Shown: positions 28,826 through 43,812 of the stretch, piece after piece
Layout: every line of letters starts with the position of its first letter
Numbering within the stretch: the stretch's first letter is position 1
Origin: Paenibacillus sp. YYML68
GTDB taxonomy: Bacteria; Bacillota; Bacilli; Paenibacillales; NBRC-103111
Reading direction: 5' to 3'
Assembly (NCBI RefSeq): GCF_027923405.1
Contig: NZ_BQYI01000001.1
Coordinates: 4,194,501 to 4,258,500 of the forward strand
Length of the DNA stretch: 64,000 bases
Notes under the pieces: model-generated
Told to the model about the DNA's origin: nothing
The model's input: only the letters and a program-made list of their open reading frames with translations
Database searches by the model: none
Translations under genes and position numbers: made by a program

Positions 28826-29986
28826 CTACATTTGTCGGATCACATCGTAAGCCAGCTTGGATAGCGGTCTTTTGCCGAAGTCCTCGGGATCGAGAGTGTA
28901 GCCGTATTGGAACAGATTCATTTCATGCTGCGTTAATTGATCCAGCCCCATCTGCTCCAGCAGTTTCTGCAGATCGTCCTGATAAGCTTTGCCATAGGCC
29001 TGTTTTTTGTATAAAATCTCCCGGACGCATTCCTTGTGGCTTTGATACAGCTTCTCCAGCTTGAACATGTCGACGCCGTTCTGTAGTATCCGGTGGAGCG
29101 CTCCCGTTCCGCTCATTTCTATCTCAATATCAAAATCCGTATTGCCTCCGATAATCGAATCAATCGAAGCTCCGGCCGCTAATACATATTTGAAGCGGGC
29201 GTCATCCATAAAGCCCCGATCATACGGATACAAAATCTCGACGCCTTTAGCGAGCTTGCAGCGTGAATTGCAAATATGGCAGGAAGGGACAAAATTGAAC
29301 AACGATAACGAGAGCAGCATAAAGACCGATTTCGGATAAAAATGATCTAGGTCCGCCGTCGTTTTGAACTTGATTCCGTCATGATATTGCGTGATGTACT
29401 GCCTATTGCAGTATGGGCATACCTCAACCCCCATACGATTCATAATGCTATGCCTCTGTTCGTCCGGCAGCATGCTATAATTGACGATCCGCCCAATCCC
29501 CTCATTCAGCTTAATCAAATCGGCTTCCACGGCATCGGTGAATGCATCAAAATACTCATCGTTTTCCATATAATTAGGATGGGCCGCCTTGATCCGGTCG
29601 AACCAACTCGATGAGTAGCGAGCTGCATACCGTTCGCGAAATCTTTCCCGCTCTCTTTGCGTCCTAGGGAGTCCTAGCTTATCTAACTCATAATGAATCT
29701 TAAAGGAGCTGTAATAGACCAGCCCACACGTCTGGATGTAATCCTGGAGATCCGCATATCTGGATGTCATATCGCTGAAGGTTCCGGTTAACAGCGTTTC
29801 CAGCAGCGTCTCGTCCAATGCGCTCCCTCTCTCGAAGAGCTCAGTAACGCGCCGCCCGGTGAACGGATTTATAGCAGGACTTGGTGAGGCACACTCTTCC
29901 AGGTAACCGCGCTTAATTATATTCTTCATCTCATTCAGGTATTCGGTAACCTGCCTGGTTATATTGGTTGGATCCAACTTAATCAC
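28826..29986 (-). CDS. HNH endonuclease of a Septu-like (PtuB-like) pair
   Basis: 386 residues. The C-terminal half holds a zinc-supported HNH nuclease: CPYCNRQY (Cys190, Cys193), DLDHFYPKS (His215), NFVPSCHICNSRC (Asn231, Cys236, Cys239). The N-terminal ~180 residues are helical and unassigned. It overlaps the upstream ATPase gene by eight bases, so the two are coupled. An ABC-type ATPase followed by an HNH nuclease is the architecture of Septu (PtuA/PtuB) anti-phage systems. In those the ATPase controls the nuclease, which attacks nucleic acid on infection. PtuB proteins are usually shorter, as I recall, so this may be a divergent subtype. Confidence 0.75.
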   Translation of the reverse strand: MIKLDPTNITRQVTEYLNEMKNIIKRGYLEECASPSPAINPFTGRRVTELFERGSALDETLLETLLTGTFSDMTSRYADLQDYIQTCGLVYYSSFKIHYELDKLGLPRTQRERERFRERYAARYSSSWFDRIKAAHPNYMENDEYFDAFTDAVEADLIKLNEGIGRIVNYSMLPDEQRHSIMNRMGVEVCPYCNRQYITQYHDGIKFKTTADLDHFYPKSVFMLLSLSLFNFVPSCHICNSRCKLAKGVEILYPYDRGFMDDARFKYVLAAGASIDSIIGGNTDFDIEIEMSGTGALHRILQNGVDMFKLEKLYQSHKECVREILYKKQAYGKAYQDDLQKLLEQMGLDQLTQHEMNLFQYGYTLDPEDFGKRPLSKLAYDVIRQM

Positions 29987-31913
29987 GAGAACGTTCCCTC
30001 CGCTTCTTCAGTGCGGCCAATTCCTTTTCCATCCTGACGATCTTGTCCTCCAACTCCCGTTGAGACGCAAACTCTTCCTGTCGAACCGCGAGCTCCGCCG
30101 CTCTGTCCTCTAGCCGCTCCCGCAGCCTCGATCGGATCACCGGCTCGTCAATAGCTGAGATCAAGCCGCTTACCCGTTCGATTTCCGTCCCATCGTACTC
30201 TCTCCACTCGTTGATCCGTTCCATGGTGCGCTTGAACAAGCCCTTAGCAAACTCGCCTACGGGCGAATCGAGGAAAAAATCGTTTTTGACGATATCGTAA
30301 AAGTTGCCCATTAATCCGAAGTCGGCTTTTTTTACGATTCTCTTCAAGTCATGCGACACATTGATACAAGTAATATGCTCCTTAGGAATGTCCGAGACGA
30401 TAAATGGAGAATGCGTGGCTATCACAACTTGAAATTTGATGCCTTCGTTAAGCTCAGCAAGGCGTATGCATTCCGTCAAATAGTGGATATAGCGCCTCGA
30501 CCACTCGGGATGGAAGGAGGCGTCCGGCTCGTCCAACAGCAGTAATATCGTATTCACTTGCTCATGATTGATGGCGACTTGTATCGCCCCGTACACGCTG
30601 ACAAAACTATGAATAAACTCAAGCTCGCCGCTGCTCATGTGCCTGAACGAAACGTCCAAGGAACGCCGAAGCCCGTACTTATTGATGAATCGGTCATATA
30701 AGAGGAGCAGCTCGTGAACAGCGTCATCCATACCCGTGCTGACAAGGACCACCACTTCCGCACCGGATATATAATAGGTGGCCTCTAGCTCTTCGAACGC
30801 AACCTTCATTGCTTTGTAAATGTTGGGGTCGAAATTAATGCCTTCTTTTTCCTGCAGCTTCGGAAGTAGCCACTCCCCCAACAAGTCCAGTAAATCGAAA
30901 AGATACTTGATTCGGGTCGAATAATCATCCGTATCATATGCGATTCCGTTGATCCGATCGATGTATTCCTGCTCCTCCTCTTTGCTAAGATCGCCTAGCA
31001 GGGAATTAAGCCACAGATCCATAACGACAGCTTCCAGGTAGGAAATGATAAACCTGTCCTTGAGACTCCATGGGCTGGGTTGCCTTTTCTTCTTAGGCAA
31101 TATAGGTAACTTATCGTTCTCGAAAAATAAAACGTTACCTTTGCCTTGATAGAACCGGAAGCCAAGCATCTCAAGCTTATCCTCTTGTGTTGTAAAGTCC
31201 GGGAAAATCTTATCGCGCCTTCGAAACTCGCAAACCGCTCTATCGATCGTAAATACGTTCTCCAACTTCTTGTATTCCGCACTCATGAACCGATAAATGC
31301 CGGCAAATAACGTATTGTCCAAATATACGCGTTGATAGCCGATAAACGTATCCTGTGCCCCTATATCCTTTACCTGCCGGAACCAGCTCCGTGTGGGAGC
31401 CTTCGATTGGTACAAGTAAATAAGTCTTTCGTTTTCAGCCGTTCGGCGGCCGTCATGAAATTCACCCGAGGTGTTTCCCTGAACGGTTATTTGCTGCCGC
31501 TCATAACTGAAAGAGATGCACACGCTATAATCCGTGATTCCCTCCGGTAAAACTCGCGCAACATTCTCCAGTAAACCAGGATTCCGGCCCTCGATGACAA
31601 ATGTATCATCTTCGAGATGATAAACAGCAAACCATTGGGCATGTTCGAAAAATTGATTTCTCTGATACTGTTTCATGCCTAGCAGATCCAGCACCGTTGA
31701 CTTACCCGAACCGTTCTTTCCGACAATAAGGTTGATATTGCTTATATGGTCTCCCCATAATCCAGCGTACGGATTAGTCCTATTCTTCGTAAGGCTCAAC
31801 TTCCTATGATGATGGTCATAGTTGATGCGGAAATCGTTTGTGAAAGTAAACTGCTGCTGCCGGAAGCATCTGCCGATTTCGTGAATGTAAAGATACGCTA
31901 AAGTCGGGTGCAT
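29979..31913 (-). CDS. ABC/SMC-like ATPase of a Septu-like (PtuA-like) pair
   Basis: 644 residues. Walker A is GKNGSGKST (65-73). The ABC signature is MSSGEL (~426-431) and Walker B ILLLLDEPDASFHPEW (~456-471). The H-loop histidine is His501 in IATHSPFIVSD. The last ~55 residues form a charged coiled coil, probably for oligomerisation or binding the HNH partner. AAAGGAG lies nine bases before the ATG, and a good promoter stands upstream. No reverse transcriptase or retron RNA lies nearby, so this is a stand-alone Septu-like pair rather than a retron-linked one. Its GC content is higher than that of the neighbouring Gabija-like operon, which suggests a separate origin. Confidence 0.78.
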   Translation of the reverse strand: MHPTLAYLYIHEIGRCFRQQQFTFTNDFRINYDHHHRKLSLTKNRTNPYAGLWGDHISNINLIVGKNGSGKSTVLDLLGMKQYQRNQFFEHAQWFAVYHLEDDTFVIEGRNPGLLENVARVLPEGITDYSVCISFSYERQQITVQGNTSGEFHDGRRTAENERLIYLYQSKAPTRSWFRQVKDIGAQDTFIGYQRVYLDNTLFAGIYRFMSAEYKKLENVFTIDRAVCEFRRRDKIFPDFTTQEDKLEMLGFRFYQGKGNVLFFENDKLPILPKKKRQPSPWSLKDRFIISYLEAVVMDLWLNSLLGDLSKEEEQEYIDRINGIAYDTDDYSTRIKYLFDLLDLLGEWLLPKLQEKEGINFDPNIYKAMKVAFEELEATYYISGAEVVVLVSTGMDDAVHELLLLYDRFINKYGLRRSLDVSFRHMSSGELEFIHSFVSVYGAIQVAINHEQVNTILLLLDEPDASFHPEWSRRYIHYLTECIRLAELNEGIKFQVVIATHSPFIVSDIPKEHITCINVSHDLKRIVKKADFGLMGNFYDIVKNDFFLDSPVGEFAKGLFKRTMERINEWREYDGTEIERVSGLISAIDEPVIRSRLRERLEDRAAELAVRQEEFASQRELEDKIVRMEKELAALKKRRERSRD

Positions 31914-31959: not shown

Positions 31960-31998
31960 ATTATAAGACACAAAAAGTAGGCTGACAATTGCTGTCAG
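31960..31998 (-). promoter_or_regulatory. Promoter and possible operator of the Septu-like operon
   Basis: On the minus strand TTGTCA (31983-31988), 17 bases and TATAAT (31960-31965) form a near-consensus sigma-A promoter. An inverted repeat CTGACA-N5-TGTCAG (31982-31998) overlaps the -35 and could bind a repressor, for example the XRE protein at the right end of the element. Confidence 0.65.
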
Positions 31999-32211: not shown

Positions 32212-33930
32212 TTATTCAGTTTGAAAATATGAACAGGTTTGTTTATTTCCAAAAATAACCAGTATAGACTTCGCTCGACTTAAGCCAACATATAATTGTT
32301 CTCTGTGTTCCTGAATATCAATAGAATCCATTCCCCATAAAAAAACTATCTCAGACTCTAATCCCTTAAATCTATTAACTGTTGTTACTAACACTGAACT
32401 ATCATTCCTTTGTTCAATATCTGAAAAGTGATGTCCTCTGGGTAGCGGCTGTTTCTCAAGAGCTTGTAAATATCCCCTTTTGTTTTTAGCATCTACAATT
32501 AATATTGCAATTTTACTAGAGTCAACCTGCTCCTCTAATAATAATTTTTGAATTCTAGAATGAATCTTGTTCGCTTGATTATTTATATTCATTGCAACTT
32601 CAAACTGCGGTTCTAATCCATCTAAATTAGAATGTTCAACGGGGTCACCATTATAATATCTATATGAAGCCTTATGAATTTGAACAGTGTTTCTACAGTT
32701 TCTTGAAAGTGGATATATTTCATCTTCACCTATTGGGAATGTACTCACACGGGAATATAGATTTTGATTATCATCATAAAAGATATAGAAAGGACTAGAC
32801 TTTTCATCAGACAGCATTAATTCAAGGGGCAACCAGTATTCTTCTCTAAAGTCTTGGCCCTCATCACATACTATTGCATCATATCTATCAGCAATAATAT
32901 CCAGAGAGCATGCAAGAGCATTTGGAAGTTGCACATCGAACTCATCTTCACCAGGATATGTTTTTTTTGCATCCTCTAATAAGTCAATACCGCTCATTTC
33001 TTTTGCTTCTTTGATCTTTGTATGACAAAGTTGATGAAAGCTCATAACAGTTAATCCATTAGTATTTTTACAGATTTCAGACAAATGGTCTGCAAGTGGA
33101 CGATTATAACATGTTAATAGTGTTGAAAACCCTTCGCTAGCTAATCGTTTCGCCTTTTCCACAGCAAGTATAGTTTTCCCAGTTCCTGCACCACCACTAA
33201 CTACAACCCGTCGTTTCTTCCTTAATATATCCAACAACTTAACTTGTTCGTTTGTTAGGAGTATCCTTGCTTCTTCTTCAGTTTTTAAACTGTTTGAGAT
33301 TAGGGGGGTGATAAAGAATGATTTTGCGAAAACCTTTTTAAAGATATCTAGCCCCTTATGCCCAATAGGAGTTGTCATTTGATCATCATCAGTCCAAAAA
33401 TCCACACAACCTTCTACCCACTTTTTTATATCCGTTAAGTGATTATTTGTTCCAATTAAAACTGCCGGCATGTCTGGCCTCTCTAAAAGTTTTGAATCCC
33501 TAATATCCGGGAAAAACACTGCATGTCCGTAGGTGATTTTTTTGACTCCAAATAGTTTCCACTCTTCGGTTTCAAAAAGTTTTGTTCGGATAGAATACTT
33601 TGCTTTTAGTGCTTGCCTTATTGGATCTTTTATTAAATTTTTCTGTCCGTAACGATCTGTAGAGAACCATTGATTAGTAGCAGCGTCAAAAGAAAGCCCC
33701 CCACCCTTTACTTCTATACACAAGTATCCAAAATTAGGATGCACAATAACAAAATCAGTTTCTCCATCTTTTGCTTCATCATTTTCTCGTTTAAGAATCC
33801 ATGCAACTTGAGAAAAAACAAAATAACTATTAGGTAATCCTTCTTTTAAAGCTTTATATACCTGAACCTCAGCTTTTGATTCAATCTCAGAAAGTTGTGA
33901 TTCAGTCAAATCCGGTATCATATTAGCCAT
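32212..33930 (-). CDS. NERD-nuclease / superfamily 1 helicase
   Basis: 572 residues. The N-terminal ~150 form a nuclease-related (NERD, PD-(D/E)xK-like) domain with Asp59 in ETDFVIV and the E-x-K pair Glu73/Lys75 in CIEVKGGG. A helicase core follows: Walker A SGGAGTGKTIL (Lys252), Walker B CDEGQDF, SRNCRNT, TTVNRFKGLESE and YVGLSRAKS. GGAGG stands nine bases before the ATG, inside the end of the preceding gene. It is the last gene of a four-gene operon and lies four bases behind the giant ATPase. NERD-helicase fusions are common in defence islands. It probably cuts and unwinds foreign DNA, or processes ends for its partners. Confidence 0.85.
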   Translation of the reverse strand: MANMIPDLTESQLSEIESKAEVQVYKALKEGLPNSYFVFSQVAWILKRENDEAKDGETDFVIVHPNFGYLCIEVKGGGLSFDAATNQWFSTDRYGQKNLIKDPIRQALKAKYSIRTKLFETEEWKLFGVKKITYGHAVFFPDIRDSKLLERPDMPAVLIGTNNHLTDIKKWVEGCVDFWTDDDQMTTPIGHKGLDIFKKVFAKSFFITPLISNSLKTEEEARILLTNEQVKLLDILRKKRRVVVSGGAGTGKTILAVEKAKRLASEGFSTLLTCYNRPLADHLSEICKNTNGLTVMSFHQLCHTKIKEAKEMSGIDLLEDAKKTYPGEDEFDVQLPNALACSLDIIADRYDAIVCDEGQDFREEYWLPLELMLSDEKSSPFYIFYDDNQNLYSRVSTFPIGEDEIYPLSRNCRNTVQIHKASYRYYNGDPVEHSNLDGLEPQFEVAMNINNQANKIHSRIQKLLLEEQVDSSKIAILIVDAKNKRGYLQALEKQPLPRGHHFSDIEQRNDSSVLVTTVNRFKGLESEIVFLWGMDSIDIQEHREQLYVGLSRAKSILVIFGNKQTCSYFQTE

Positions 33931-33934
33931 TTAC

Positions 33935-36900
33935 TTAATCCTCCAAAATATCCATTTGAGTTACATTAATTGGAATTTTCTTTTCACCGCTTTCAAAATC
34001 AACAATTAATAGCTTTAGTTTGCCTTTAATAACTTCACCTTTAATAACTCCTATTCCATGTGTGTGATGATTTATTTTTGTACCTAAAATTAACTTATCT
34101 ATTGGATTATTTGCTTCTGCTATTGCCCTCCAACCGTAATCAAAAACATAATTTGTAATTTTATTATAAGGATCCTGTATTCGGTTAATTCGAACATGTT
34201 GTTCATCCCCGACGAACTCCAAAATGTATAGCCAATATCTATCTGCAAGAACCTTTGCCTTTTTCATTTGGGAGCTTGAAAGTAACACACCATAATTATT
34301 CCATTCTCCAGAAAAACCGAATACTTTTATATACCTATTTATTTCCTCAGAATCGCCACTACATGAAATAACGTCATAGTCTTCTTCCATTTCAGATGAT
34401 AGAGTTGGATTTCTCCCTGTTTTCTCCTCATAATTCAATGTAAGCCTTCTAGATAATAATCGTAATTGTATCTCTTCTTCCCTTTCGACCATTTGCAAAG
34501 AAGGTTCAATTAGATCACTTGAAACATATGAGATCAAACGTTTTTTTTGATTATTAGAAATTAAATTATCTACTTTTGTTAGTGAGCCATTAGATGGCTC
34601 GTAATTATATGCTTCATCAAAATCATCAAAGTTAACTTTATTAGAATTGCTGTCCTCTTTATAACTTCCTTTTGTAAAATTGAAACTTATGGTTCCATTT
34701 TGTCTATTAAGAGCATGCACAATCGCACTATCTTCACCATCTTCTACTTGTATCTCCAAATTACTTCCTTCATCAAGTTGAGGCCAATTCTCATAAAAAT
34801 AATCTTCGCTGATATTTTCATCATCCCTAAAATCTTCGTAGGACTCATACTGAATAACAGTATATCCCTTCGAATATAACCAGCTTTCAATATCAGCACT
34901 AGAAAGTTGTAGTAATAGACCAATCTCTCTATCTTTTCCTTCCATTTCAAAGAGAGAACCTAAAGAACTACTTAAATTATAGAGAGTCAATGGATTTTTA
35001 AAATGCCCAACATAATACAAAGAATTCGTGGACACTTCATAATATGAATCAACATTTTGATTGTATATTATAGTGCCGTAATCATCTGCAAAAGATAAAG
35101 ATAACGAGTCAGCTTTATAAAAGCTAACTTCATTAAGTTTTTTAATAAACTTAGCAAATGTATCGCTTGGATGTTCAGCTTTAATATTTGATAGAAGTGT
35201 AGCAAAGTAATTTGCTTTTTTTTGCAAAGCATTTAGTAGCTCAGTATCATGCTCTGCATCTATTACGTTTAGTTTAAGATTATCGTTCTGAATAATTTTA
35301 ATGTCGAAATAATCAAATAAAATTTCTTTATCCTTTAGTGAATCTGATATTTTCAGAAAATATTTTGAATTAGCGGGCGGTAGATATCCTAAAACGTTAA
35401 AAAAGTATAGTGAAGAATTAGATTGAAAAGAATCATCGGTTGCTAATAATTTCATAGTAACACCATTGCGTTCGCCTACCGGCTTATTGCTTATAATTTG
35501 TTTGTATATAGCTTCGATCTGCTTAAATGTATTTTTATCAACTGTGCAGTCCTCAATTTTTTTAAGTAAATATACACAATCTTGAAGAGTAACTACTCTT
35601 TTAATCCCCAAAAAGTTTTCCTGTTCTTTATTAAAATTGAGAGATTCATGAACAGTGGGATAGTAGTCTCTAACAATACTCCTCAAATTTTCTGAATATA
35701 CCTCAGTAGATTTGTAACACTGTTTGTTATTAGTAGGTATACTAGGATGATTTTGAACAAAGTATTGGAAATAAGAAACTACCGCTTTTGAACCAACATA
35801 AGTATAATAGGTTGTTTTATTGCAATTTGAATGAATCACATCCCATTTTTCACAAATCAATTTCCAATATGATATAGAGAAACTAAAATTATTAGTATAC
35901 TCTAAATAATCAATGAATAACGCATTTTGCAATCCATGCTGCCCAGAAGATTTATAACGACTAGTTATACTTTCATAATAACTCCCATCATTATCTATAT
36001 GGTCGAAATACACCTTCATTAAGGGATATTTCCTAATCGCTTCTGTTCTTTCGATTCTTGATACAACATTATATTTTATTTTTTCTTTAACCCCTATTCT
36101 AACCATCAAGGATTTCCATCGATAAATTTCCTTTTCATTATCCACGTATCCATTTGTTACGTACTTTCCTTCGGGAAGTATTTCTTCGATTTTTAGCTCT
36201 GGATCATAAAAATTAGATAAATAACATTCACTTGGTAACTCTAAAGTTCCTTTTGTGGTTACCAACTTTAATGCTAACAAATTTCTGTAGTCATTATCAT
36301 CTAGTTTGCCTTGCTGATAAACTTTGAATATAAACCTTCCGATAGGTAATGCATTATTAATGTTTATAAGATTGTTTTTTATCATTTCAACAATTGACTT
36401 ACGTATTATTTCTATGTCAGAAGGCTCTCTTACTCCTAATATTTTCAACCATTCTAATAACTCTTTGTTACTTTTAAAGGCTTCAAATAATCCTTCATTT
36501 ATACATGCTAGTCCAACTATATTGTTTATTTCATTATCTCCTTCAGATATCGGAAAATATAAATTTTCTGGAGAGTTTAGCTTATTACTATCACTTAATA
36601 AAAATGCTGACGACCTCAGTGTTCGTGACCAATCAAACTTTTGTTTATAAGAATCCTTTTTAAACAGAAACTGAACAAGATTAATATTGAACTCTAAATT
36701 AGAATTACATAATTCTATAAACCGAGCAGATTTAAAAATCTCGCATAAATCCTTGATTTCAATCTTCTTTACTCCCAAAACTGACAATTTATTCGGATTA
36801 ATAATTTCACAAGCAGCAACTTCATAATTATTATTGTAGTGATTTTTAATTATAGAAGTGTTAAACTCTCCACAAAATCCTGTTGTATCCAAAATACTCT

Positions 36901-38128
36901 GATTAACTTTTAGCAAACCATCTTTATCATGTTTTGGTATAAATGCTGTCTTAGCGATTGCTGCATCTAATCCATCGTTATACGCTTGTTTTAGTTCTGA
37001 TGATCCGACGGATGTATAATGGGGTTTAATCAACTTTGTAAATTCATATACAAATTTATTATCTTCAACCAATTCAGAGATCCATTGTACTTTGCAAATC
37101 GCTATTTGTTTAAAAATAAAGTTATTCCATGCATTCTCAAGTATTTGAGTTCTTTCAGCATTAGTAATAAAGTCACCATTAATCAAAAAGTTGAATTCAC
37201 TTTTGGCCTTTGTTGGTAAATACGAATAAAATAAAGCATTAGATATTTCTTGTAATTCATCATTTAAGACACAGGCTGAAAAAATTATTTTTGTTTTCGT
37301 TGAAAATTTCAATTTATCAGGGCAAACGGTAGAATCAAGAAGCATAACTTTATCTTTCGTTTCTTTATCAACAGGGACAACAAATTCTTTATAAATCCAT
37401 TTGCTTTTTATTTGTCCACTAACTGATATTTCCTTTGAATCATTCCCAATTTTCTCACAGCTAATTTTCTTTTCTTCTTTATTCTTATCAAAGAATGTGA
37501 TCTTTTTAACATGGCGCAAAAACAGCATGATTCTTGGGTCCTCTAATACGCTAAGTATCTCCTTCTTTATCTTTTCTCTGTTACTTACCGCAATAATCGT
37601 AGTAACATAAGAACTATTAAATTCATTACTTAGTTCACTTTCCAACTCAGTTTTCTCAAACCATATAGGAATTATCTGCCATGGATACTCTTGTGTATTT
37701 CTCCACTGATCAAAGTATCTATCGAACTTAAAGGTGAACTTATTTGATATAATAAATACTTGATCACATGTTCCAAAAATCGATTTAAACCCTATCCCTT
37801 TATATCCAGTTTTCTCAATATCTTTCGTTTTACCACTGTCACCACTACCTACATTTGATATCCCTCTTACATCTTCTTTTGTAAAGTGCTTTCCATTATG
37901 GCTAAATATTAAATAGTTATCTAGAAGTTTTAATTCAATTTCTACATCTCCATGAATATTTGCTCCTGGAGAATCGTCAGCATTCTGAATTAATTCAAAA
38001 ATAAATCGATTTGCATCTCCAAATACTGTTTTTGTAAGTATATTCAGAAGACTAGCAAGTGATTTCGAATTACTATCATTTTTAGTTTTATCATCATATA
38101 GATCTTGTACGAATTTTTTCTCTTCCAT
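33935..38128 (-). CDS. Giant sacsin-like GHKL ATPase with C-terminal Tudor-like segment
   Basis: 1,397 residues from the ATG that has AGGAG eleven bases ahead; a longer frame starts at 38239, overlapping the helicase stop as ATGA. The N-terminus matches sacsin/HSP90-type ATPase domains: FELIQNADD (Glu45, Asn49, Asp52), SHNGKHFTKEDVRGI (G1), GSGDSGKTKDIEKTGYKGIGFKSIF (lid and G2). The middle ~1,100 residues are unassigned. The last ~55 (GTKINHHTHGIGVIKGE...LIVDFESGEKKI) resemble the Tudor-like tail of UvrD-type helicases. It lies between a UvrD-like helicase and a NERD helicase. I infer a remodelling ATPase or infection sensor. It is very AT-rich compared with the chromosome. Confidence 0.8.
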   Translation of the reverse strand: MEEKKFVQDLYDDKTKNDSNSKSLASLLNILTKTVFGDANRFIFELIQNADDSPGANIHGDVEIELKLLDNYLIFSHNGKHFTKEDVRGISNVGSGDSGKTKDIEKTGYKGIGFKSIFGTCDQVFIISNKFTFKFDRYFDQWRNTQEYPWQIIPIWFEKTELESELSNEFNSSYVTTIIAVSNREKIKKEILSVLEDPRIMLFLRHVKKITFFDKNKEEKKISCEKIGNDSKEISVSGQIKSKWIYKEFVVPVDKETKDKVMLLDSTVCPDKLKFSTKTKIIFSACVLNDELQEISNALFYSYLPTKAKSEFNFLINGDFITNAERTQILENAWNNFIFKQIAICKVQWISELVEDNKFVYEFTKLIKPHYTSVGSSELKQAYNDGLDAAIAKTAFIPKHDKDGLLKVNQSILDTTGFCGEFNTSIIKNHYNNNYEVAACEIINPNKLSVLGVKKIEIKDLCEIFKSARFIELCNSNLEFNINLVQFLFKKDSYKQKFDWSRTLRSSAFLLSDSNKLNSPENLYFPISEGDNEINNIVGLACINEGLFEAFKSNKELLEWLKILGVREPSDIEIIRKSIVEMIKNNLININNALPIGRFIFKVYQQGKLDDNDYRNLLALKLVTTKGTLELPSECYLSNFYDPELKIEEILPEGKYVTNGYVDNEKEIYRWKSLMVRIGVKEKIKYNVVSRIERTEAIRKYPLMKVYFDHIDNDGSYYESITSRYKSSGQHGLQNALFIDYLEYTNNFSFSISYWKLICEKWDVIHSNCNKTTYYTYVGSKAVVSYFQYFVQNHPSIPTNNKQCYKSTEVYSENLRSIVRDYYPTVHESLNFNKEQENFLGIKRVVTLQDCVYLLKKIEDCTVDKNTFKQIEAIYKQIISNKPVGERNGVTMKLLATDDSFQSNSSLYFFNVLGYLPPANSKYFLKISDSLKDKEILFDYFDIKIIQNDNLKLNVIDAEHDTELLNALQKKANYFATLLSNIKAEHPSDTFAKFIKKLNEVSFYKADSLSLSFADDYGTIIYNQNVDSYYEVSTNSLYYVGHFKNPLTLYNLSSSLGSLFEMEGKDREIGLLLQLSSADIESWLYSKGYTVIQYESYEDFRDDENISEDYFYENWPQLDEGSNLEIQVEDGEDSAIVHALNRQNGTISFNFTKGSYKEDSNSNKVNFDDFDEAYNYEPSNGSLTKVDNLISNNQKKRLISYVSSDLIEPSLQMVEREEEIQLRLLSRRLTLNYEEKTGRNPTLSSEMEEDYDVISCSGDSEEINRYIKVFGFSGEWNNYGVLLSSSQMKKAKVLADRYWLYILEFVGDEQHVRINRIQDPYNKITNYVFDYGWRAIAEANNPIDKLILGTKINHHTHGIGVIKGEVIKGKLKLLIVDFESGEKKIPINVTQMDILED

Positions 38129-38235
38129 GGTGATAATTACTCCTACTTTATATTGAAATAATGAATTTAATCTTCCTTTTAGAAACTTGTCGCCCTGCCG
38201 CGGCATCTTCATGCGACTCACGATTCGAGATGTGC

Positions 38236-39984
38236 TCATTTATCCGGAACATCTAAGCTGCTGAGTTTAGCTAACTCAGTTATACCTGGGCACCAAACAC
38301 AAAGGAACCTTCTTGCTCTGGTAAAAGCTACAAATCCTACACGGGCCTCTTCTTTATCATTTATTTTAAGCCATCCTTCAAGTTCCTTTAAATCTTCAGC
38401 AATAACTAGGATGGAGGTAGCCTCTCTTCCTTTGGCACTGTGTATTGTTGATAGATAGGCTCTTTCAGCCTCATTCGGATCTAGGATGATTTGATCCATT
38501 ACTTGTTGTACTGTTATCTTTTTGATTTCCCTCTTTTGGCTTGGCCAGTCGTAATCAAGGCTCTTAAGTTTAATACCTATTTTAATCCCTAATCTCTTCT
38601 CAGAAAAATCCTTTAGATGCCCCTTTAATGCTTTAAAAAAGCTATCTATAGTCATTACATTGAAATCTTGAGCATTTAACCAAGCAAATACTCCTACCTG
38701 TAGTTTCCTCCATACCATGCGATCATACTTTATTTCAGAAAGATTAATAAAATTGGGATTCTTGTTGAATATTACACGAGCCAATGCAAATTCAATTGCT
38801 TCAATACTTTTGCCATATTCCTGAGAATGGTTCAAGAGTACTGCTTTCAATAATTGATTAATGATTTCGTATCGTCTATAATCAATTTCTTTTAATTTAT
38901 TAAGAAATGGAGCCTGTTCGATCTCATGTCCATTAATCTTATGTTGAATTTCTGTAAGCATTTCATGTTTCCTAGACAGAATTAAAAATGGAATATGCTC
39001 TTGTTCCGAACCAACTTTTAACCTAAGCTCATGAAAAGCTTCAATGGCTTGTTTTGTATTAGCTTTATCCATAAGAAGAATAACGTCTTGATGTATGCCC
39101 GCGTTACTTCCGTTTGCAAATTGCTTAAAAGTAGCTTTCTTGTTATTGAAATCAACAATTGCCGTAGTACTGCGGAAATTATTTGTGAGAGTATATTTCT
39201 TAAATGTACCGGGGTTGCTTAACCTACTTTCAAATATTGTTGGTTCAGCCCCCGTAAAACTAAATATCGACTGGTTAGGATCTCCAACAAAAAAGAAGGA
39301 CGTACTATCTAATAATCGAAATATCTGATCCTGGTAATAAGTTACGTCCTGATATTCGTCAACTAAAATCGCTGAAAAGCGGGAAGTTAGTGCAGCTTTA
39401 AGATGTGGGAACTTTGATAAAAGTTGAAATGCAAAATATATTGTATCTTGTTGGTCAATCTTATGATCATCATGTATCAATTTTTTTAATATTGACATTT
39501 CACCTTCTGTAATTTTGTTTGACCTATAACAAATTAAATCACCGGATTTATCATATCCGATTGATTCTAGTGCAATAACGTTATCTGGTATTTTAAATTT
39601 TCTTGAATCAGAGACACTATTAACATAATATTTAGAGAAACCACGAGGTAACAATTCATAGGTTTGTCCAACTTGCGAAAGTAGATAGCTATAGGGAGCT
39701 ATCAAATACTCATTTAAAAATGAATGTATTGTCCCAATGAAAGTACCCTGCGGTAAGGAGAACTCATTTTCTTTTTGAAGACGTTCAAGTATTTCATCTT
39801 TTGCCGCATTTGTATACGTAATACAAGCAATATTAGAATTAGGTCTGATTGTGTGCTTGCACAAATAAACGAGGCGATCTATTAGTAGCTTTGTTTTCCC
39901 GCTCCCGGGACCAGCCGCGACAATAATACTCTCAGTTACAGGAAGAGTAGCAATTTCTTTTCTCAGTTCTTTGGAATCTTTCAT
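38236..39984 (-). CDS. gajB: UvrD-like helicase, GajB-like
   Basis: 582 residues, superfamily 1 helicase. Motifs: AAGPGSGKTKLL (Walker A, 23-34), ITYTNAAKDE, VDEYQDV (Asp209, Glu210), GDPNQSIFSFTGAEP, NNFRST, STIHSAKGREA, VAFTRARR. Its start codon overlaps the stop of the upstream OLD nuclease by one base (TAATG), so translation is coupled. An OLD-family nuclease followed by a UvrD-like helicase defines Gabija. There, GajA is a sequence-specific nicking nuclease and GajB is thought to be activated by DNA ends. It is slightly longer than the described GajB. Two further genes in the same operon set this locus apart. Confidence 0.8.
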   Translation of the reverse strand: MKDSKELRKEIATLPVTESIIVAAGPGSGKTKLLIDRLVYLCKHTIRPNSNIACITYTNAAKDEILERLQKENEFSLPQGTFIGTIHSFLNEYLIAPYSYLLSQVGQTYELLPRGFSKYYVNSVSDSRKFKIPDNVIALESIGYDKSGDLICYRSNKITEGEMSILKKLIHDDHKIDQQDTIYFAFQLLSKFPHLKAALTSRFSAILVDEYQDVTYYQDQIFRLLDSTSFFFVGDPNQSIFSFTGAEPTIFESRLSNPGTFKKYTLTNNFRSTTAIVDFNNKKATFKQFANGSNAGIHQDVILLMDKANTKQAIEAFHELRLKVGSEQEHIPFLILSRKHEMLTEIQHKINGHEIEQAPFLNKLKEIDYRRYEIINQLLKAVLLNHSQEYGKSIEAIEFALARVIFNKNPNFINLSEIKYDRMVWRKLQVGVFAWLNAQDFNVMTIDSFFKALKGHLKDFSEKRLGIKIGIKLKSLDYDWPSQKREIKKITVQQVMDQIILDPNEAERAYLSTIHSAKGREATSILVIAEDLKELEGWLKINDKEEARVGFVAFTRARRFLCVWCPGITELAKLSSLDVPDK

Positions 39985-41813
39985 TAATCCTCCGAAAGAA
40001 TATCCAAAATATCTGTAATATATTTTGGAATTTTTATTTCTTCACCTAATATTAATTCATCTAGTACATATTGAGCGGCTTCTCCTTTAGTCTCGGCGAC
40101 AATGAGGAAAGCCTCCCTTTCAAATTCATGGCCAGTTAATGTTGCAATTTTTTCTCTTTCATCCTTGGTGCCTAATTCGTATTTAGCTATTAGATTTTTG
40201 AAAAAGCTATGATTCTCAAGTATAAGGTCATATTCAAATGTTTTTAGGTTTGTTTGTATGAATACGTGAGGTAATCCTTTAAAATCATTTATTAAGTTAG
40301 TAGTTCTAGAGCAAGGGCTGGCAGGATTCTGTTTAGTCGGGAACACATCGACCTTGAGTTTTTCATTAGATACTGGATCAATTATCTCACGTTTTTCTGG
40401 ATCACTATCAGTCAATACTGCACATTTTTGGTTAAGACCAGTTTGTCCAAAAAGATGTAAGAATGGTCGGAAAGCGACTCCATCGACAGATATAATTGAT
40501 ACCCCATAGCCTTCTAATGTTTTTATTGGCTCGTTTTTCTTCCTTCCCTTATTCCAATATATTTCTGCCATTTTGGGAATAAGCAATCTTTCAGCAATAC
40601 CCTCTACCAAAAGGGTTTTTCTCCCAAAAAATATATTGGATTTTGTAGCATCTAGCCATCTTTCAAGGTGGCGTTTATATTGTTCTGTCTTTTTATCAAA
40701 GATACTGCCTATTTGTTTTGACTGTATTTTTTCGCCTTCTCTATACATCAGAATTAATGAATTTAAATTAACGGATGATGAGATGTGGGTCGAATGGGAA
40801 GTTACAAGAATTTGGCCAGCTAAAGACTCCTTGAAGAAGTAGTTGCTTAAATACCTTTGTAAATGGGTATGCAAATGCGCTTCAGGTTCTTCAACTGTTA
40901 AAATTGGAAATGTATAATCAATGCCCTTTTTATCTTTTTTATTAAAGTATTGCGCCAGCAATAGACTAATAAAAAGCAAATTATTATATCCTAATCCGTT
41001 AGTTTCTACTGAGTGGACGTTACCATTATTGGGCCCTATTAAGACTTTTAAATTCTTAAGTAATTGCTCGTAACTACTTTCTGCCATCTGAATTTCAGTA
41101 CGTTGGTGTAAATGACCTGTTATTTGTTTTAGATAATCATTAATCGTTGTTTTCGCTTTATCTATTTCACTGGATAACTTTATCTGTTTATTTAACTCTT
41201 GAATTTTCCTAATCACTTCATCTTTATTTATTTCGTCTTGGTCGTAGGAGCTAATAATTTTATGTAACTTACTTGAGGATCTACTTAAATCGGATGTAGC
41301 ATCTCTTAAAGCATCCACACTTTCAAAAGTGAATCGTTGAAGCATCTGATGATCAAATATATCATTTGTTTCCTTTTCACCACCAAAAATAACCCATTCA
41401 TATTGATCAATAGGTATTTTTAAATCTTTAATTAAAGTAGGATTGACTGGTGGTGTTTTTTTACAGTTGCCTTTTGGCCTAAAAATATATGTTAATTTAG
41501 CTTGCCCTGGTTCCTTAGTTAGCCACTTATAAGCAAGTGCCATTTCATCTTCAGTAATTATTTCAGATAATGTAACCTCAACTTTAATCGAAGGCCATAC
41601 TCCATGAACTACTATTTCATTATTAAAATCATCTTGAGTTAATTGTCGGCGTCTCCAACCGTTGTTCGATATAAAAATGAGGGACAATGCATCTAGCATA
41701 TTTGATTTACCAATATTGTTCTCGCCAATTATCACTGACAGTCCCTGGTTGAATTCTATTGTAAAGTCCACAAAAGATTTATAGTTCTGAATACTCAGCT
41801 TAGATATGTACAT
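39984..41813 (-). CDS. gajA: OLD-family ATPase/TOPRIM nuclease, GajA-like
   Basis: 609 residues. The split ABC-type ATPase shows Walker A GENNIGKSN (30-38), Walker B ILTVEEPEAHLH (~304-315) and a H-loop SHSTHIS (~339-345). The TOPRIM nuclease has Glu404 in LLVEGIAERLL, Asp469/Asp471 in LTDSD and Lys524 in NLKTFEYDL, so all key residues are present. In characterised Gabija, GajA nicks DNA when nucleotide levels fall during infection. GGAGG stands seven bases before the ATG. It heads a leftward operon: this gene, gajB-like helicase, sacsin-like ATPase, NERD helicase. A class 2 OLD protein by its helicase partner. Confidence 0.85.
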   Translation of the reverse strand: MYISKLSIQNYKSFVDFTIEFNQGLSVIIGENNIGKSNMLDALSLIFISNNGWRRRQLTQDDFNNEIVVHGVWPSIKVEVTLSEIITEDEMALAYKWLTKEPGQAKLTYIFRPKGNCKKTPPVNPTLIKDLKIPIDQYEWVIFGGEKETNDIFDHQMLQRFTFESVDALRDATSDLSRSSSKLHKIISSYDQDEINKDEVIRKIQELNKQIKLSSEIDKAKTTINDYLKQITGHLHQRTEIQMAESSYEQLLKNLKVLIGPNNGNVHSVETNGLGYNNLLFISLLLAQYFNKKDKKGIDYTFPILTVEEPEAHLHTHLQRYLSNYFFKESLAGQILVTSHSTHISSSVNLNSLILMYREGEKIQSKQIGSIFDKKTEQYKRHLERWLDATKSNIFFGRKTLLVEGIAERLLIPKMAEIYWNKGRKKNEPIKTLEGYGVSIISVDGVAFRPFLHLFGQTGLNQKCAVLTDSDPEKREIIDPVSNEKLKVDVFPTKQNPASPCSRTTNLINDFKGLPHVFIQTNLKTFEYDLILENHSFFKNLIAKYELGTKDEREKIATLTGHEFEREAFLIVAETKGEAAQYVLDELILGEEIKIPKYITDILDILSED

Positions 41814-42002: not shown

Positions 42003-42359
42003 TTACTTCTTATTCATACTGCATTCAGCCGGGAGCGATCCCGACCATGGCATGAATGAATCGAGTGTTGATTCATCAAGCGGATCAGGCAACTGAGGCA
42101 ACTGCTCGAATAGATACTTCAAGTAGTTGTACGGATGCAGTCCGTTTTCCTTGGCTGTCTCAATCACGCTATAGATGACAGCGCTCGCCTTCGCTCCTCG
42201 CGGCGTGTTCGCGAACAGCCAGTTCTTCCGGCCGATCACAAACGGTTTAATGGAGCGTTCACTTCGATTGTTGTCGATCTCCAGCCATCCATCTTCCATG
42301 AAGGCCGTCAACTTCTCCCACTGGTTCAAGCTGTAGGCGATCGCCTGTCCATATGCCAC
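42003..42359 (-). pseudogene. C-terminal fragment of an IS66-type transposase
   Basis: 118 residues match the end of IS66 transposases (WLEIDNNRSERSIKPFVIGRKNWLFANTPRGA, then an IS66 C-terminal tail, LHPYNYLKYLFEQLP). The N-terminal two thirds are gone. A hairpin (CCCCACC, TAGC, GGTGGG) and GGTGAGCGTC at about 41946 may mark the old IS end. It lies between the defence operon and the regulators, so an IS has helped shape this side of the element. Confidence 0.8.
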
Positions 42360-42512
42360 CCTGTTTCTTTTCTATATTATTGAGTAATTCGACAGAATAG
42401 GCTTTGTTTCCTTGTCCCGAGACAACTTAAAATCTATATAGAAGGATTTCCTAAATATTGTGTCGAAGCAAGTATCGTTCAACTGATCGTTTTGAGAATG
42501 AGGAGGATTGAC

Positions 42513-43260
42513 ATGAATACACAATCCCTTAACCCTTCATTTGAATTTCTTTTTTCATCCGTCTTTCACGATGAAATTGTTCAAGCTGTAATAAAATTGA
42601 GGCAACGATATACCTATACTCCAAATAAGTACTTAACTATTAAGGAAGTCTCTTCGATAACTGGAATCGGAACCTATACTTTAAGACAGCTTACTTATGC
42701 TAGAGCGATGCCTCATAGGCTTGTTAAGTCTCGGATCATGTTTGTTGAAAATGAAATAAAGGCAACAATTGATTGTTATAAGGATAATGGCTGGGCTGAC
42801 CCCAATCATGATTGGGATGTCAAAGAAGCTCAAAATGAGATTAATACTTTTCAAAAGTCAAAGGAGGGATCTATTTTGATTGAGGAAATAATCAGGAAGA
42901 TAATAAGGGAAGAATTAAATAGTTTCTTACGGGAAATTCAGAGCACCAAAAAAAAACGGAGAAAATTTTTATGGAAGAACGATTCTAACTATAAAAGAAT
43001 CTGCACAGCATTTTAGAACAAGTCCATCGACAATTTATAGTTTAATTAAAGAGGATGGAATGCCTCATTTGAAATTACAGAGCAGGTTCTACGTTGTACT
43101 TGAGGAAGCCGAGGCATTTATATGGCGAGAAACGGCGAAATCTTATGCAATTAAAGGGAACATATACTGGCAGAGGATTTTACAAAGACTTGATTGGGAA
43201 GAAAAAGAGCGTGAAAATGCATATACAAAAGCTTTGAAAAGACTTGAGGAAGGAATCTAA
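42513..43260 (+). CDS. Protein with two excisionase-like HTH domains, split by a frameshift at a run of nine A
   Basis: GGAGG lies six bases before the ATG at 42513. The first frame runs to 43016 and holds one HTH_17/excisionase-like domain (LTIKEVSSITGIGTYTLRQLTYARAMPH...). From the nine-A run at 42948-42956 the next frame continues without a stop through a second, related domain (LTIKESAQHFRTSPSTIYSLIKEDGMPH...) to 43260. Removing one A joins them into a 248-residue protein. The duplicated domain pattern makes the joint product credible. The break could be transcriptional slippage, a mutation or a sequencing error. It lies within the element's right part; a DNA-binding role in regulation or target choice is possible. 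Confidence 0.6.
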
Positions 43261-43264
43261 TGGT

Positions 43265-43453
43265 TCAATCAAGCATCTTTTTCTCAAAATCAAGGCTTAT
43301 TCGGTATATACCGTAAATTAATGTGCCTATTAAAAAACTTTCAACTTCATGCAAATATTCTCCGGAAAGAATTGACCCTGTTCCCCATCCGACGAATATG
43401 ACAGTTATTATTTTTAAGATCACTCCTTCATTCTTATCTAACCATCCCATCAT
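43265..43453 (-). CDS. Small membrane protein coupled to the XRE regulator
   Basis: 62 residues with two predicted membrane segments (VILKIITVIFVGWGTGSIL and ESFLIGTLIYGIYRI). Its ATG overlaps the stop of the XRE gene as ATGA. I do not recognise the family. Small two-span proteins beside repressors occur in phages and mobile elements, sometimes as toxins or sensors, but nothing here proves that. Confidence 0.65.
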   Translation of the reverse strand: MMGWLDKNEGVILKIITVIFVGWGTGSILSGEYLHEVESFLIGTLIYGIYRISLDFEKKMLD

Positions 43454-43812
43454 TTAGAATCCCTACTCCTCTTCTGTAATTTATAGTCGACAAATTCTAC
43501 AACACGTTCTTGCTCGTCTAAATTCAACTTTTTAAACATTGACATAAGTTTAATCTCTGCTGAAGTTAGTGAAAAGGCATACTCACCCTCAGGTCGTAAT
43601 GGATCAGACGACTTTTGAACTCCCTCGATCAACAACCAATTAAGATCAAACCCATATTTGTTTCTCAACGCAATTAAAGTATCGGCGGATGGCTTGCTGT
43701 TACCTTTTTCTATTTCATTTAGATTACCTTGTGATATACCAAGAGCTGTTGAAAATTCAACATGGCTTAAATTATGTAATTTTCGAAAAGCCTTTATTTT
43801 TTCACCGATCAT
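43450..43812 (-). CDS. XRE-family repressor-like regulator
   Basis: 120 residues. The N-terminal helix-turn-helix (KIKAFRKLHNLSHVEFSTALGISQGNLNEIEKGNSKPSADTL) is typical of lambda-Cro/XRE proteins. The C-terminal half is short and helical, without a peptidase domain. AAAGGATGA lies about nine bases ahead. It probably autoregulates and may control other genes of the element. Confidence 0.85.
   Translation of the reverse strand: MIGEKIKAFRKLHNLSHVEFSTALGISQGNLNEIEKGNSKPSADTLIALRNKYGFDLNWLLIEGVQKSSDPLRPEGEYAFSLTSAEIKLMSMFKKLNLDEQERVVEFVDYKLQKRSRDSK

What the first reader, a model, noticed from the sequence alone, without database searches (positions are those of the whole stretch)
32212..41813. 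Gabija-like pair in one operon with a sacsin-like giant ATPase and a NERD helicase
Four genes are packed head to tail (1-bp overlap; ATGA overlap or 107-bp gap depending on the start; 4-bp gap) with one apparent terminator. The first two make a Gabija-type set with all key residues present. The last two, a GHKL/sacsin-type ATPase of ~1,400 residues and a NERD nuclease-helicase, are not part of described Gabija. The whole may be an extended or composite defence system, or two systems sharing one promoter.
Basis: partly seen in the sequence, partly recalled or inferred. Interest (0 to 1): 0.85.

Follow-up and report, generated by a model that had tools for sequence, protein, structure and literature searches.

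The report
Gabija beside two-gene Tiamat-like module
Four tightly packed bacterial genes turn out to be two neighbouring phage-defence modules: an ordinary Gabija pair, and a giant switch protein of the Tiamat family together with a nuclease-helicase that seems to be its dedicated partner, which gives a testable idea of how the poorly understood Tiamat system works.

Summary
All four genes are present, intact and packed as described, but the four-gene unit is not a conserved system. Genes 1-2 are a standard Gabija pair. Gene 3 is a Tiamat ATPase (PADLOC TmtA, E 3e-276). Gene 4 belongs to one clade of NERD nuclease-helicases. In a genome scan made with gene 4 alone, 24 of 24 clade members with readable upstream sequence lie directly behind a TmtA-type gene; 0 of 11 more distant NERD-helicases do. 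GajA was found beside none of these 36, and none of 19 other GajA places in Bacilli has a full TmtA or this NERD-helicase nearby. So: Gabija next to a two-gene TmtA + NERD-helicase module. The shared TmtA C-terminus is a PD-(D/E)XK (NOV_C) domain plus a UvrD/PcrA-type Tudor domain, which I did not find in NERD-helicase. Trees show that heads were exchanged against a tail + NERD-helicase cassette. In this window the NOV_C site is lost (IEVKG became IKVFG) while the NERD site is intact. Best model: TmtA is the ATP-driven sensor and scaffold, NERD-helicase the effector in trans. Phage protection is untested. My literature searches of the held library found no description of the pair.

The parts
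39984..41813 (-). gajA: OLD-type ABC ATPase with TOPRIM nuclease domain, 609 aa
   Evidence: PADLOC GajA 3.8e-141; Pfam AAA_15 and OLD-like_TOPRIM; PDB GajA chains 8e-8; motifs
38236..39984 (-). gajB: UvrD-type helicase, 582 aa
   Evidence: PADLOC GajB 2.8e-66; PDB GajB 8jqb 3.3e-21
38129..38235 (-). 107-bp gap between gajB and the likely tmtA start; holds a ribosome-binding-site-like AGGAG
   Evidence: sequence; PADLOC alignment start; single copy in the genome
33935..38128 (-). tmtA: Tiamat-type giant ATPase, 1397 aa from M38 (the longest ORF starts at 38239, 1434 aa)
   Evidence: PADLOC TmtA PDLC03972 3e-276, 3.3e-276 from M38
37703..38044 (-). sacsin/GHKL (Hsp90-type) ATPase domain of TmtA, residues 66-179 of the 1434-aa ORF
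   Evidence: Pfam SACS 3e-11, NCBIfam P_loop_sacsin 1.7e-21; profile of 25 TmtA rows hits sacsin structures 5v47 8.8e-17
34190..34438 (-). NOV_C (DUF3883) PD-(D/E)XK domain of TmtA, residues 1268-1350; active-site motif IEVKG replaced by IKVFG at 34316-34330
   Evidence: Pfam NOV_C; alignment; fold match to SPARDA nuclease 9qcc Z 12.3 and Hjc 2wcw Z 10.3
33944..34102 (-). C-terminal UvrD/PcrA-type Tudor domain of TmtA, about residues 1380-1432
   Evidence: profile hits to UvrD C-terminal domain structures 7egs 5.2e-4, 6yi2 6.9e-4; Foldseek first match 5dma 2.6e-3; VIA Z 7.3 and 7.2; Pfam PcrA_UvrD_tudor in 6 of 25 relatives, not in the window's own row
32212..33930 (-). NERD-helicase, 572 aa: N-terminal NERD nuclease (residues 18-123) and SF1 UvrD/Schlafen-like helicase
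   Evidence: Pfam NERD 2e-11, UvrD_C; PADLOC RTasNERD-Hel 2.7e-70; catalytic residues invariant in 28 of 28 rows; AlphaFold pLDDT 87, Foldseek SLFN11 6.1e-21 and UvrD 4.3e-14
31982..31998 (-). terminator-like hairpin behind the NERD-helicase gene
   Evidence: consensus match only
28826..31913 (-). neighbouring candidate system PDC-M62 (AAA ATPase 29979-31913 and HNH-like protein 28826-29986), not part of the pair
   Evidence: PADLOC PDC-M62A 6.9e-41, PDC-M62B 3.9e-51; promoter-like site 31988-31960 in front

Best explanation
Two defence modules lie head to tail. Module 1 is Gabija (GajA + GajB). Module 2 is a two-gene variant of Tiamat: TmtA plus its own NERD-helicase. Shown: the pairing, the overlapping or near-touching genes, the domain make-up, the lost NOV_C site here, and the exchange of heads against a tail + NERD-helicase cassette. 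Inferred: the two proteins form a complex. The GHKL/sacsin ATPase head of TmtA acts as an ATP-driven clamp or switch that senses infection. Its C-terminal PD-(D/E)XK-Tudor end docks the NERD-helicase, or brings the complex to transcribing RNA polymerase as the like domain of UvrD/PcrA does. The released NERD-helicase then tracks along and cuts nucleic acid. In this window the NOV_C domain can no longer cut, so NERD would be the only nuclease of module 2.
For: Gene 4 alone used as bait: 36 loci. 25 have a NERD-helicase of 40% identity or more; 24 of 24 evaluable have a TmtA-type gene directly upstream. In L074 the contig begins 154 bp upstream, and these bases end in a peptide like the TmtA end of L075 from the same MAG. 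11 loci with identity of 33% or less: none directly adjacent. In 22 of 25 pairs (24 plus plasmid L045) the NERD-helicase start lies before the TmtA stop codon; 3 have gaps of 2-3 bp (in L094 the aligned position is not a start codon). The TmtA-linked NERD-helicases form one branch, support 99, of a 45-row tree. Heads: AU test rejects window + L060 group as one clade, p 1.65e-5; the window head joins L051 and L048, which have no such partner. NERD-helicase: AU test rejects L045 + L060 group without the window, p 0.004; in the tail tree the window joins the L060 group, support 92.9, unstarred. Independent test in 369 gammaproteobacterial genomes: a third Tudor-bearing TmtA end (G764) also has the NERD-helicase behind it, while 3 TmtA-like genes without the Tudor part do not. 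Tudor. NOV_C E and K present in 27 of 27 other NOV_C rows, both lost only here; NERD residues intact in 28 of 28. Gabija absent from the 36 loci.
Against: No phage or biochemical test exists here. The Tudor part is neither necessary nor sufficient proof of docking: Microvirga L046 has NOV_C + Tudor but no NERD-helicase within about 10 kb, and the published PcrA-binding motif (strict form) occurs in none of the TmtA or NERD-helicase proteins tested. The Tudor fold match is of middling strength (Z 7.3 over 53 residues; the window's own row is not called by Pfam). The C-terminal model is moderate (pLDDT 74, pTM 0.54). Many of the 24 loci are close relatives (about 50-77% alike), so they are not 24 independent events; several are MAGs. 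The distance correlation of NERD-helicase with the TmtA tail (r 0.90) is no better than with the middle part (0.90). Trees are quick ones with long branches, and the tested groups were picked after seeing identities. In the window Gabija and the pair share one strand and a low GC of about 0.29-0.35, so a local functional link is not excluded.
Confidence: 0.72

Rival explanations
1. One composite four-gene system: Gabija extended by a sacsin-type ATPase and a NERD-helicase that act together.
For: Head-to-tail order, one strand, short gaps and similar low GC; defence genes of all four kinds intact.
Against: No GajA in 36 NERD-helicase loci; GajA family found in only 4 of 25 genomes or records that carry the pair, and in none of these beside it as far as positions can be read; 19 other GajA places in Bacilli without full TmtA or NERD-helicase nearby. 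The four-gene order was seen only here. The 107-bp gap separates gajB from tmtA.
Confidence: 0.08
2. TmtA is a complete single-gene system and the NERD-helicase is a passenger or a separate one-gene defence that travels with it.
For: TmtA genes without a NERD-helicase exist (L046, L047, L048, L157) and PADLOC treats TmtA as Tiamat on its own (label recalled, models). NERD-helicases occur with other partners such as DrmA/DrmB operons.
Against: The link is restricted to one NERD-helicase clade and is 24 of 24 there; genes overlap by 20 bases in 20 of 25 pairs; tail and NERD-helicase stay together while heads change; this window's TmtA has lost its own NOV_C site.
Confidence: 0.17
3. The NERD-helicase is the accessory helicase of a reverse-transcriptase (DRT) or DISARM-type system that has lost its other genes.
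For: Its best PADLOC model is named RTasNERD-Hel; related NERD-helicases sit in DrmA/DrmB operons.
Against: The three reverse transcriptases of this genome lie at 1.68, 2.87 and 3.69 Mb, the window at 4.19-4.26 Mb; the DrmAB-linked NERD-helicases form other branches of the tree.
Confidence: 0.03

Closest known systems
Gabija (GajAB)
   Same: GajA with OLD-type ATPase and TOPRIM, GajB UvrD-type helicase, adjacent, motifs intact.
   Different: Nothing defining; it merely has tmtA and a NERD-helicase gene behind it.
Tiamat (TmtA)
   Same: TmtA profile match over nearly the whole protein; sacsin/GHKL head and NOV_C end.
   Different: Comes with a dedicated NERD-helicase gene and a UvrD-type Tudor end; NOV_C active site lost in this copy. 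Tiamat is handled as a one-gene system in PADLOC (recalled).
NERD-helicases of other systems (PADLOC RTasNERD-Hel and C3a187; DISARM-like DrmAB operons; the TALON system of PMC12458937 has a NERD nuclease)
   Same: NERD nuclease; in the DrmAB-linked ones also the same NERD + SF1 helicase architecture, 24-33% identity.
   Different: Other partners, other branches of the tree. Of PMC12458937 I saw the abstract and passages only.
UvrD/PcrA helicase and its Tudor domain
   Same: SF1 helicase core in the NERD-helicase; the Tudor domain in TmtA matches the UvrD/PcrA C-terminal one.
   Different: Helicase and Tudor domain are in two different proteins here.
Nuclease-helicase defence complexes such as Hachiman (HamAB), Gabija, Schlafen-like helicases
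   Same: General logic of ATPase sensing coupled to a nuclease-helicase; the helicase fold is nearest to human SLFN11. Hachiman known from a search listing abstract only.
   Different: Sensor here is a GHKL/Hsp90-type ATPase of about 1,400 residues.

Membership tests
Gabija | GajA: OLD-type ABC ATPase plus TOPRIM domain | tested here: met
   Pfam AAA_15, OLD-like_TOPRIM; PADLOC GajA 3.8e-141; motifs
Gabija | adjacent GajB UvrD-type helicase | tested here: met
   1-bp overlap; PADLOC GajB 2.8e-66; GajB structures 3.3e-21
Gabija | GajA-GajB complex and phage protection | not testable with these tools
   needs biochemistry and phage challenge
Tiamat | TmtA protein: match to TmtA profile over most of its length | tested here: met
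   PDLC03972, residues 38-1366 on model 1-1293 of 1302, 918 bits
Tiamat | stands as a single gene without partner (definition recalled from PADLOC/DefenseFinder, not from a call) | tested here: not met
   dedicated NERD-helicase behind tmtA in 24 of 24 evaluable relatives of gene 4
Tiamat | NOV_C PD-(D/E)XK active site | tested here: not met
   IKVFG instead of IEVKG; 27 of 27 other NOV_C rows keep E and K. Whether the site is a defining feature of Tiamat is not established
Tiamat | protection against phage | not testable with these tools
DRT (reverse-transcriptase systems with RTasNERD-Hel) | reverse transcriptase gene beside the NERD-helicase | tested here: not met
   RVT_1 matches of the genome lie outside the window
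DISARM-like DrmAB operons with NERD-helicase | DrmA helicase and DrmB (DUF1998) beside the NERD-helicase | tested here: not met
   neighbours scanned are GajAB, TmtA, PDC-M62AB; no Drm model among the rows listed (best 25 per protein)

The most novel reading that the evidence does not exclude
Tiamat is in general the sensor half of a family of two-part systems: a GHKL/Hsp90-type clamp (TmtA) that works with a separately encoded SF1 nuclease-helicase, with heads and effector cassettes exchanged between lineages. In the NERD-helicase branch TmtA carries the RNA-polymerase-docking Tudor domain that UvrD/PcrA helicases normally carry themselves, so the system would patrol transcription and cut phage nucleic acid during transcription. 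Hints beyond the main branch: a TmtA without Tudor followed by a UvrD-type helicase (G642), a TmtA-type fragment followed by an SF1 helicase protein of 1254 aa (G722), and a TmtA head fused to a caspase-like domain with a CHAT-domain gene behind it (G034).
Probability: 0.28. Interest if true: 0.82.

Novelty: new variant of a known kind. Interest (0 to 1): 0.6.

Why it matters
The mechanism of Tiamat is listed as unknown in the papers I could see passages of (PMC12926258, PMC10482375, PMC10740426). A dedicated nuclease-helicase partner, a lost nuclease site in one copy, and a UvrD-type Tudor domain on the switch protein turn this into simple deletion and point-mutant tests. It also warns annotators: gene finders that call TmtA alone would cut this system in half, and the NERD-helicase would be labelled as part of a reverse-transcriptase system.

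Tried and rejected
Composite Gabija: rejected on co-occurrence. Reverse-transcriptase system: rejected. Docking of the Tudor domain on the NERD-helicase through the published PcrA-binding motif [VIL]-D-x-x-T-G-E-[VIL]-[VILT] (PMC8318588, passages): 0 strict matches in all proteins tested; a TGE turn occurs in the NOV_C hairpin of most relatives but not in the window, so this gives no support.

Phage records: 2 weak or distant NERD-helicase matches, no match for L060 TmtA. The TmtA profile search in Bacilli rings in 163 of 398 genomes mostly through short GHKL (HtpG-like) or NOV_C matches and in 7 of 14 control genomes, so it was not used for counting. NERD-helicase searches in Bacilli and in the order score only the best 3-4 first-look candidates per genome; in 276 genomes of the order 2 others matched, one in a DrmAB operon (L163) and one without a recognised partner among the queries used (L164). 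The GajA search has the same limit; 3 of its 19 stretches were short because contigs end (L118, L126, L134).

Limits of the pairing count: 24 of 25; L074 was set aside before the count because its contig starts 154 bp upstream. L079 is cut by its contig end, L082 is split into two frames, L094 is interrupted. L089 (distant group) has a TmtA-head-like match (27%, 362 aa) on the opposite strand about 7 kb away. L124 (GajA group) has a 721-aa GHKL protein about 2 kb upstream of GajA, which is not a full TmtA.

Literature: searches for Tiamat+Gabija+NERD, TmtA+Tiamat, sacsin+NERD+helicase, NERD+reverse transcriptases+helicase+defense systems returned no paper; the original Tiamat paper is not held. 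So 'not described' means not found in this library.
Full report
What is there. The window is part of a complete 5.09-Mb genome of the class Bacilli, as drawn by the genome tool. Four ORFs on the - strand match the finding exactly. By profile they are GajA (3.8e-141), GajB (2.8e-66), TmtA of Tiamat (3e-276) and a NERD-helicase whose best model is RTasNERD-Hel (2.7e-70). Pfam agrees: AAA_15 and OLD-like TOPRIM; UvrD; sacsin domain and NOV_C; NERD and UvrD_C. The likely start of tmtA is M38 at 38128, leaving 107 bp behind gajB. Behind gene 4 follow a hairpin, a promoter-like site and a further candidate defence pair, PDC-M62AB. The GC content falls from about 0.53-0.60 in the right flank (0.50-0.58 in the left) to 0.29-0.35 over genes 1-4, while PDC-M62AB has 0.44-0.49: an acquired island made of at least two compositions.

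Is the four-gene set a system? No evidence for it. The TmtA query found no other match in the genus (1 of 25 genomes, the window's own) and in the family 4 of 104 genomes match at 1e-3, two of them weakly (41 and 19 bits). A scan of about 85,000 species genomes with gene 4 and its Sphingomonas relative as bait returned 36 loci. None holds a GajA by tblastn at 1e-6; one (L063) has a GajB-like helicase match about 9 kb away. The GajA family was found at 1e-20 in 4 of 25 genomes or records with the pair; the plasmid one lies tens of kilobases away, and the positions of the other three (on contigs that cannot be, or need not be, those of the pair) do not place them beside it. Conversely 19 GajA places in 18 other Bacilli genomes out of 398 searched were read with flanks: none has a NERD-helicase match or a full-length TmtA; one has a 721-aa GHKL protein, one has PDC-M62AB next to it.

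Genes 3 and 4 belong together. Among the 36 loci, 25 have a NERD-helicase at 40% identity or more. In 24 a TmtA-type gene lies directly upstream in the same direction; the 25th contig starts 154 bp upstream and is not evaluable, though these bases end in a TmtA-like end peptide. Of the 11 loci at 33% or less, none has TmtA directly adjacent; 10 NERD-helicases of the wider set (from Bacilli, plasmids and this scan) sit in DrmA/DrmB operons and 4 in a Chloroflexota operon. A Sphingomonas naphthae plasmid has the pair with a 2-bp gap and no Gabija beside it. In 20 of 25 pairs the genes overlap by 20 bases, in 2 by 8, and in 3 the gap is 2-3 bases. The hosts are mostly Pseudomonadota, with two Geobacteraceae, a Phycisphaerae MAG, a Roizmanbacteria MAG and the window. 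The NERD-helicase tree puts the TmtA-linked ones on one branch with support 99.

A cassette with exchangeable heads. The window's TmtA head and middle match L051 from the same bacterial family (171 and 148 bits), whose own C-terminus is caspase-like (PADLOC caspase 1.3e-9). The heads of NERD-linked TmtAs score at most 72 bits and their middles give nothing. Its C-terminus matches the NERD-linked TmtAs at 78-135 bits and not L051 or L048. PADLOC puts the heads in different TmtA subfamilies: window PDLC03972, L045 PDLC03969, L081 PDLC03966. In the head tree the window joins L051 and L048, and L081 joins L157 and L158, neither set having the NERD-helicase; window + L060 group as one clade is rejected (p 1.65e-5). 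In the NERD-helicase tree the window goes with the L060 group, and L045 + L060 group without the window is rejected (p 0.004). In the tail tree it also goes with the L060 group, support 92.9, not starred. So the tail and the NERD-helicase moved together under different heads. Caveats: quick trees, long branches, groups chosen after seeing identities. Distances of NERD-helicase and TmtA parts correlate (tail 0.90, middle 0.90, head 0.81; 21 pairs), which by itself fits plain co-inheritance.

What the C-terminus is. All 25 members of the C-terminal alignment match NOV_C, and 6 of 25 match Pfam PcrA_UvrD_tudor. The profile hits UvrD C-terminal domain structures 7egs (5.2e-4), 6yi2 (6.9e-4) and 9dqs (7.2e-3). 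The AlphaFold model of the window's piece (pLDDT 74, pTM 0.54) has Foldseek first matches to the PcrA Tudor domain (5dma, 2.6e-3) and Holliday junction resolvases; none reaches 1e-3. VIA gives SPARDA nuclease Z 12.3 and Hjc Z 10.3 for NOV_C, UvrD1/PcrA Tudor Z 7.3 and 7.2. NOV_C/DUF3883 has been called a restriction-endonuclease domain (PMC3710099, passages). The UvrD/PcrA Tudor domain binds RNA polymerase and UvrB (PMC8318588, abstract and passages; titles and abstracts of PMC5397179 and PMC7585439 in the listing). In the window the conserved IEVKG is IKVFG, while E and K are kept in 27 of 27 other NOV_C rows (L051, caspase-like, not counted); the NERD residues E21, E57, D59, E73, K75 and the helicase motifs are invariant in 28 of 28. 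The NERD-helicase model is good (pLDDT 87) and nearest to SLFN11 and UvrD.

Independent check. The C-terminal profile was run on 369 gammaproteobacterial genomes: 11 match. Two are genomes already in the set. G764 has a TmtA end fragment with the Tudor part, cut by what looks like an insertion element, and a NERD-helicase (53% identical) behind it. G606, G642 and G722 have TmtA-like proteins whose match stops before the Tudor part; none has this NERD-helicase behind it, but G642 has a 710-aa UvrD-type helicase and G722 a 1254-aa SF1 helicase protein next door. The other 5 matches are short NOV_C matches in ORFs of 1171-1255 aa that I did not follow. Against a simple rule: Microvirga L046 has NOV_C and Tudor but no NERD-helicase nearby.

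Mechanism. Gabija should work as described for Gabija. For module 2 the most likely scheme is a GHKL clamp (TmtA) as sensor and scaffold, and a NERD-helicase as the effector that moves along and cuts nucleic acid. Complex formation, the trigger, the substrate and the role of the Tudor domain are inferred, not shown.

Verdict. Ordinary Gabija next to a two-gene, head-swapped variant of Tiamat. The pairing and the domain exchange are the new points; the mechanism of Tiamat is given as unknown in the papers seen, and my searches found no description of the pair.

Noticed in passing
window 28826-31913: A PDC-M62-type pair (AAA ATPase + HNH-like protein) follows gene 4 with a strong promoter-like site (31988-31960); in another Bacilli genome (L125) PDC-M62AB also lies beside Gabija.
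   Followed up: partly
window 42003-42359: IS66 transposase C-terminal remnant directly upstream of gajA, a possible trace of how the island arrived.
   Followed up: no
window 42492-43016 and 43450-43812; L053 3498-4659: A divergent pair of HTH proteins upstream of the island; relatives of both (49% identity for the first) also lie upstream of an 1875-aa ORF with a TmtA-type match in genome G215.
   Followed up: partly
L051 7015-16897: A TmtA of the same bacterial family ends in a caspase-like domain and is followed by a 1305-aa CHAT-domain protein: the same head with a protease-type end.
   Followed up: partly
L158 4461-11516; L160 740-7213: TmtA-type genes without the Tudor part followed by other SF1 helicase genes (710 aa UvrD type; 1254 aa).
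   Followed up: partly
L054, L056, L057, L058, L087, L088, L089, L092, L049, L050: NERD-helicases of other branches sit in DrmA/DrmB operons, in Bacilli and Alphaproteobacteria.
   Followed up: partly
L090, L091, L093, L095: A four-locus Chloroflexota operon with a NERD-helicase and conserved flanking genes without PADLOC match for the two tested; may relate to the TALON system of PMC12458937.
   Followed up: no
L124: A 721-aa GHKL protein lies about 2 kb upstream of GajA in genome G363.
   Followed up: no
own genome C1:4331973-4332290 and C1:1255813-1256103: Two further NERD-domain proteins elsewhere in this genome.
   Followed up: no
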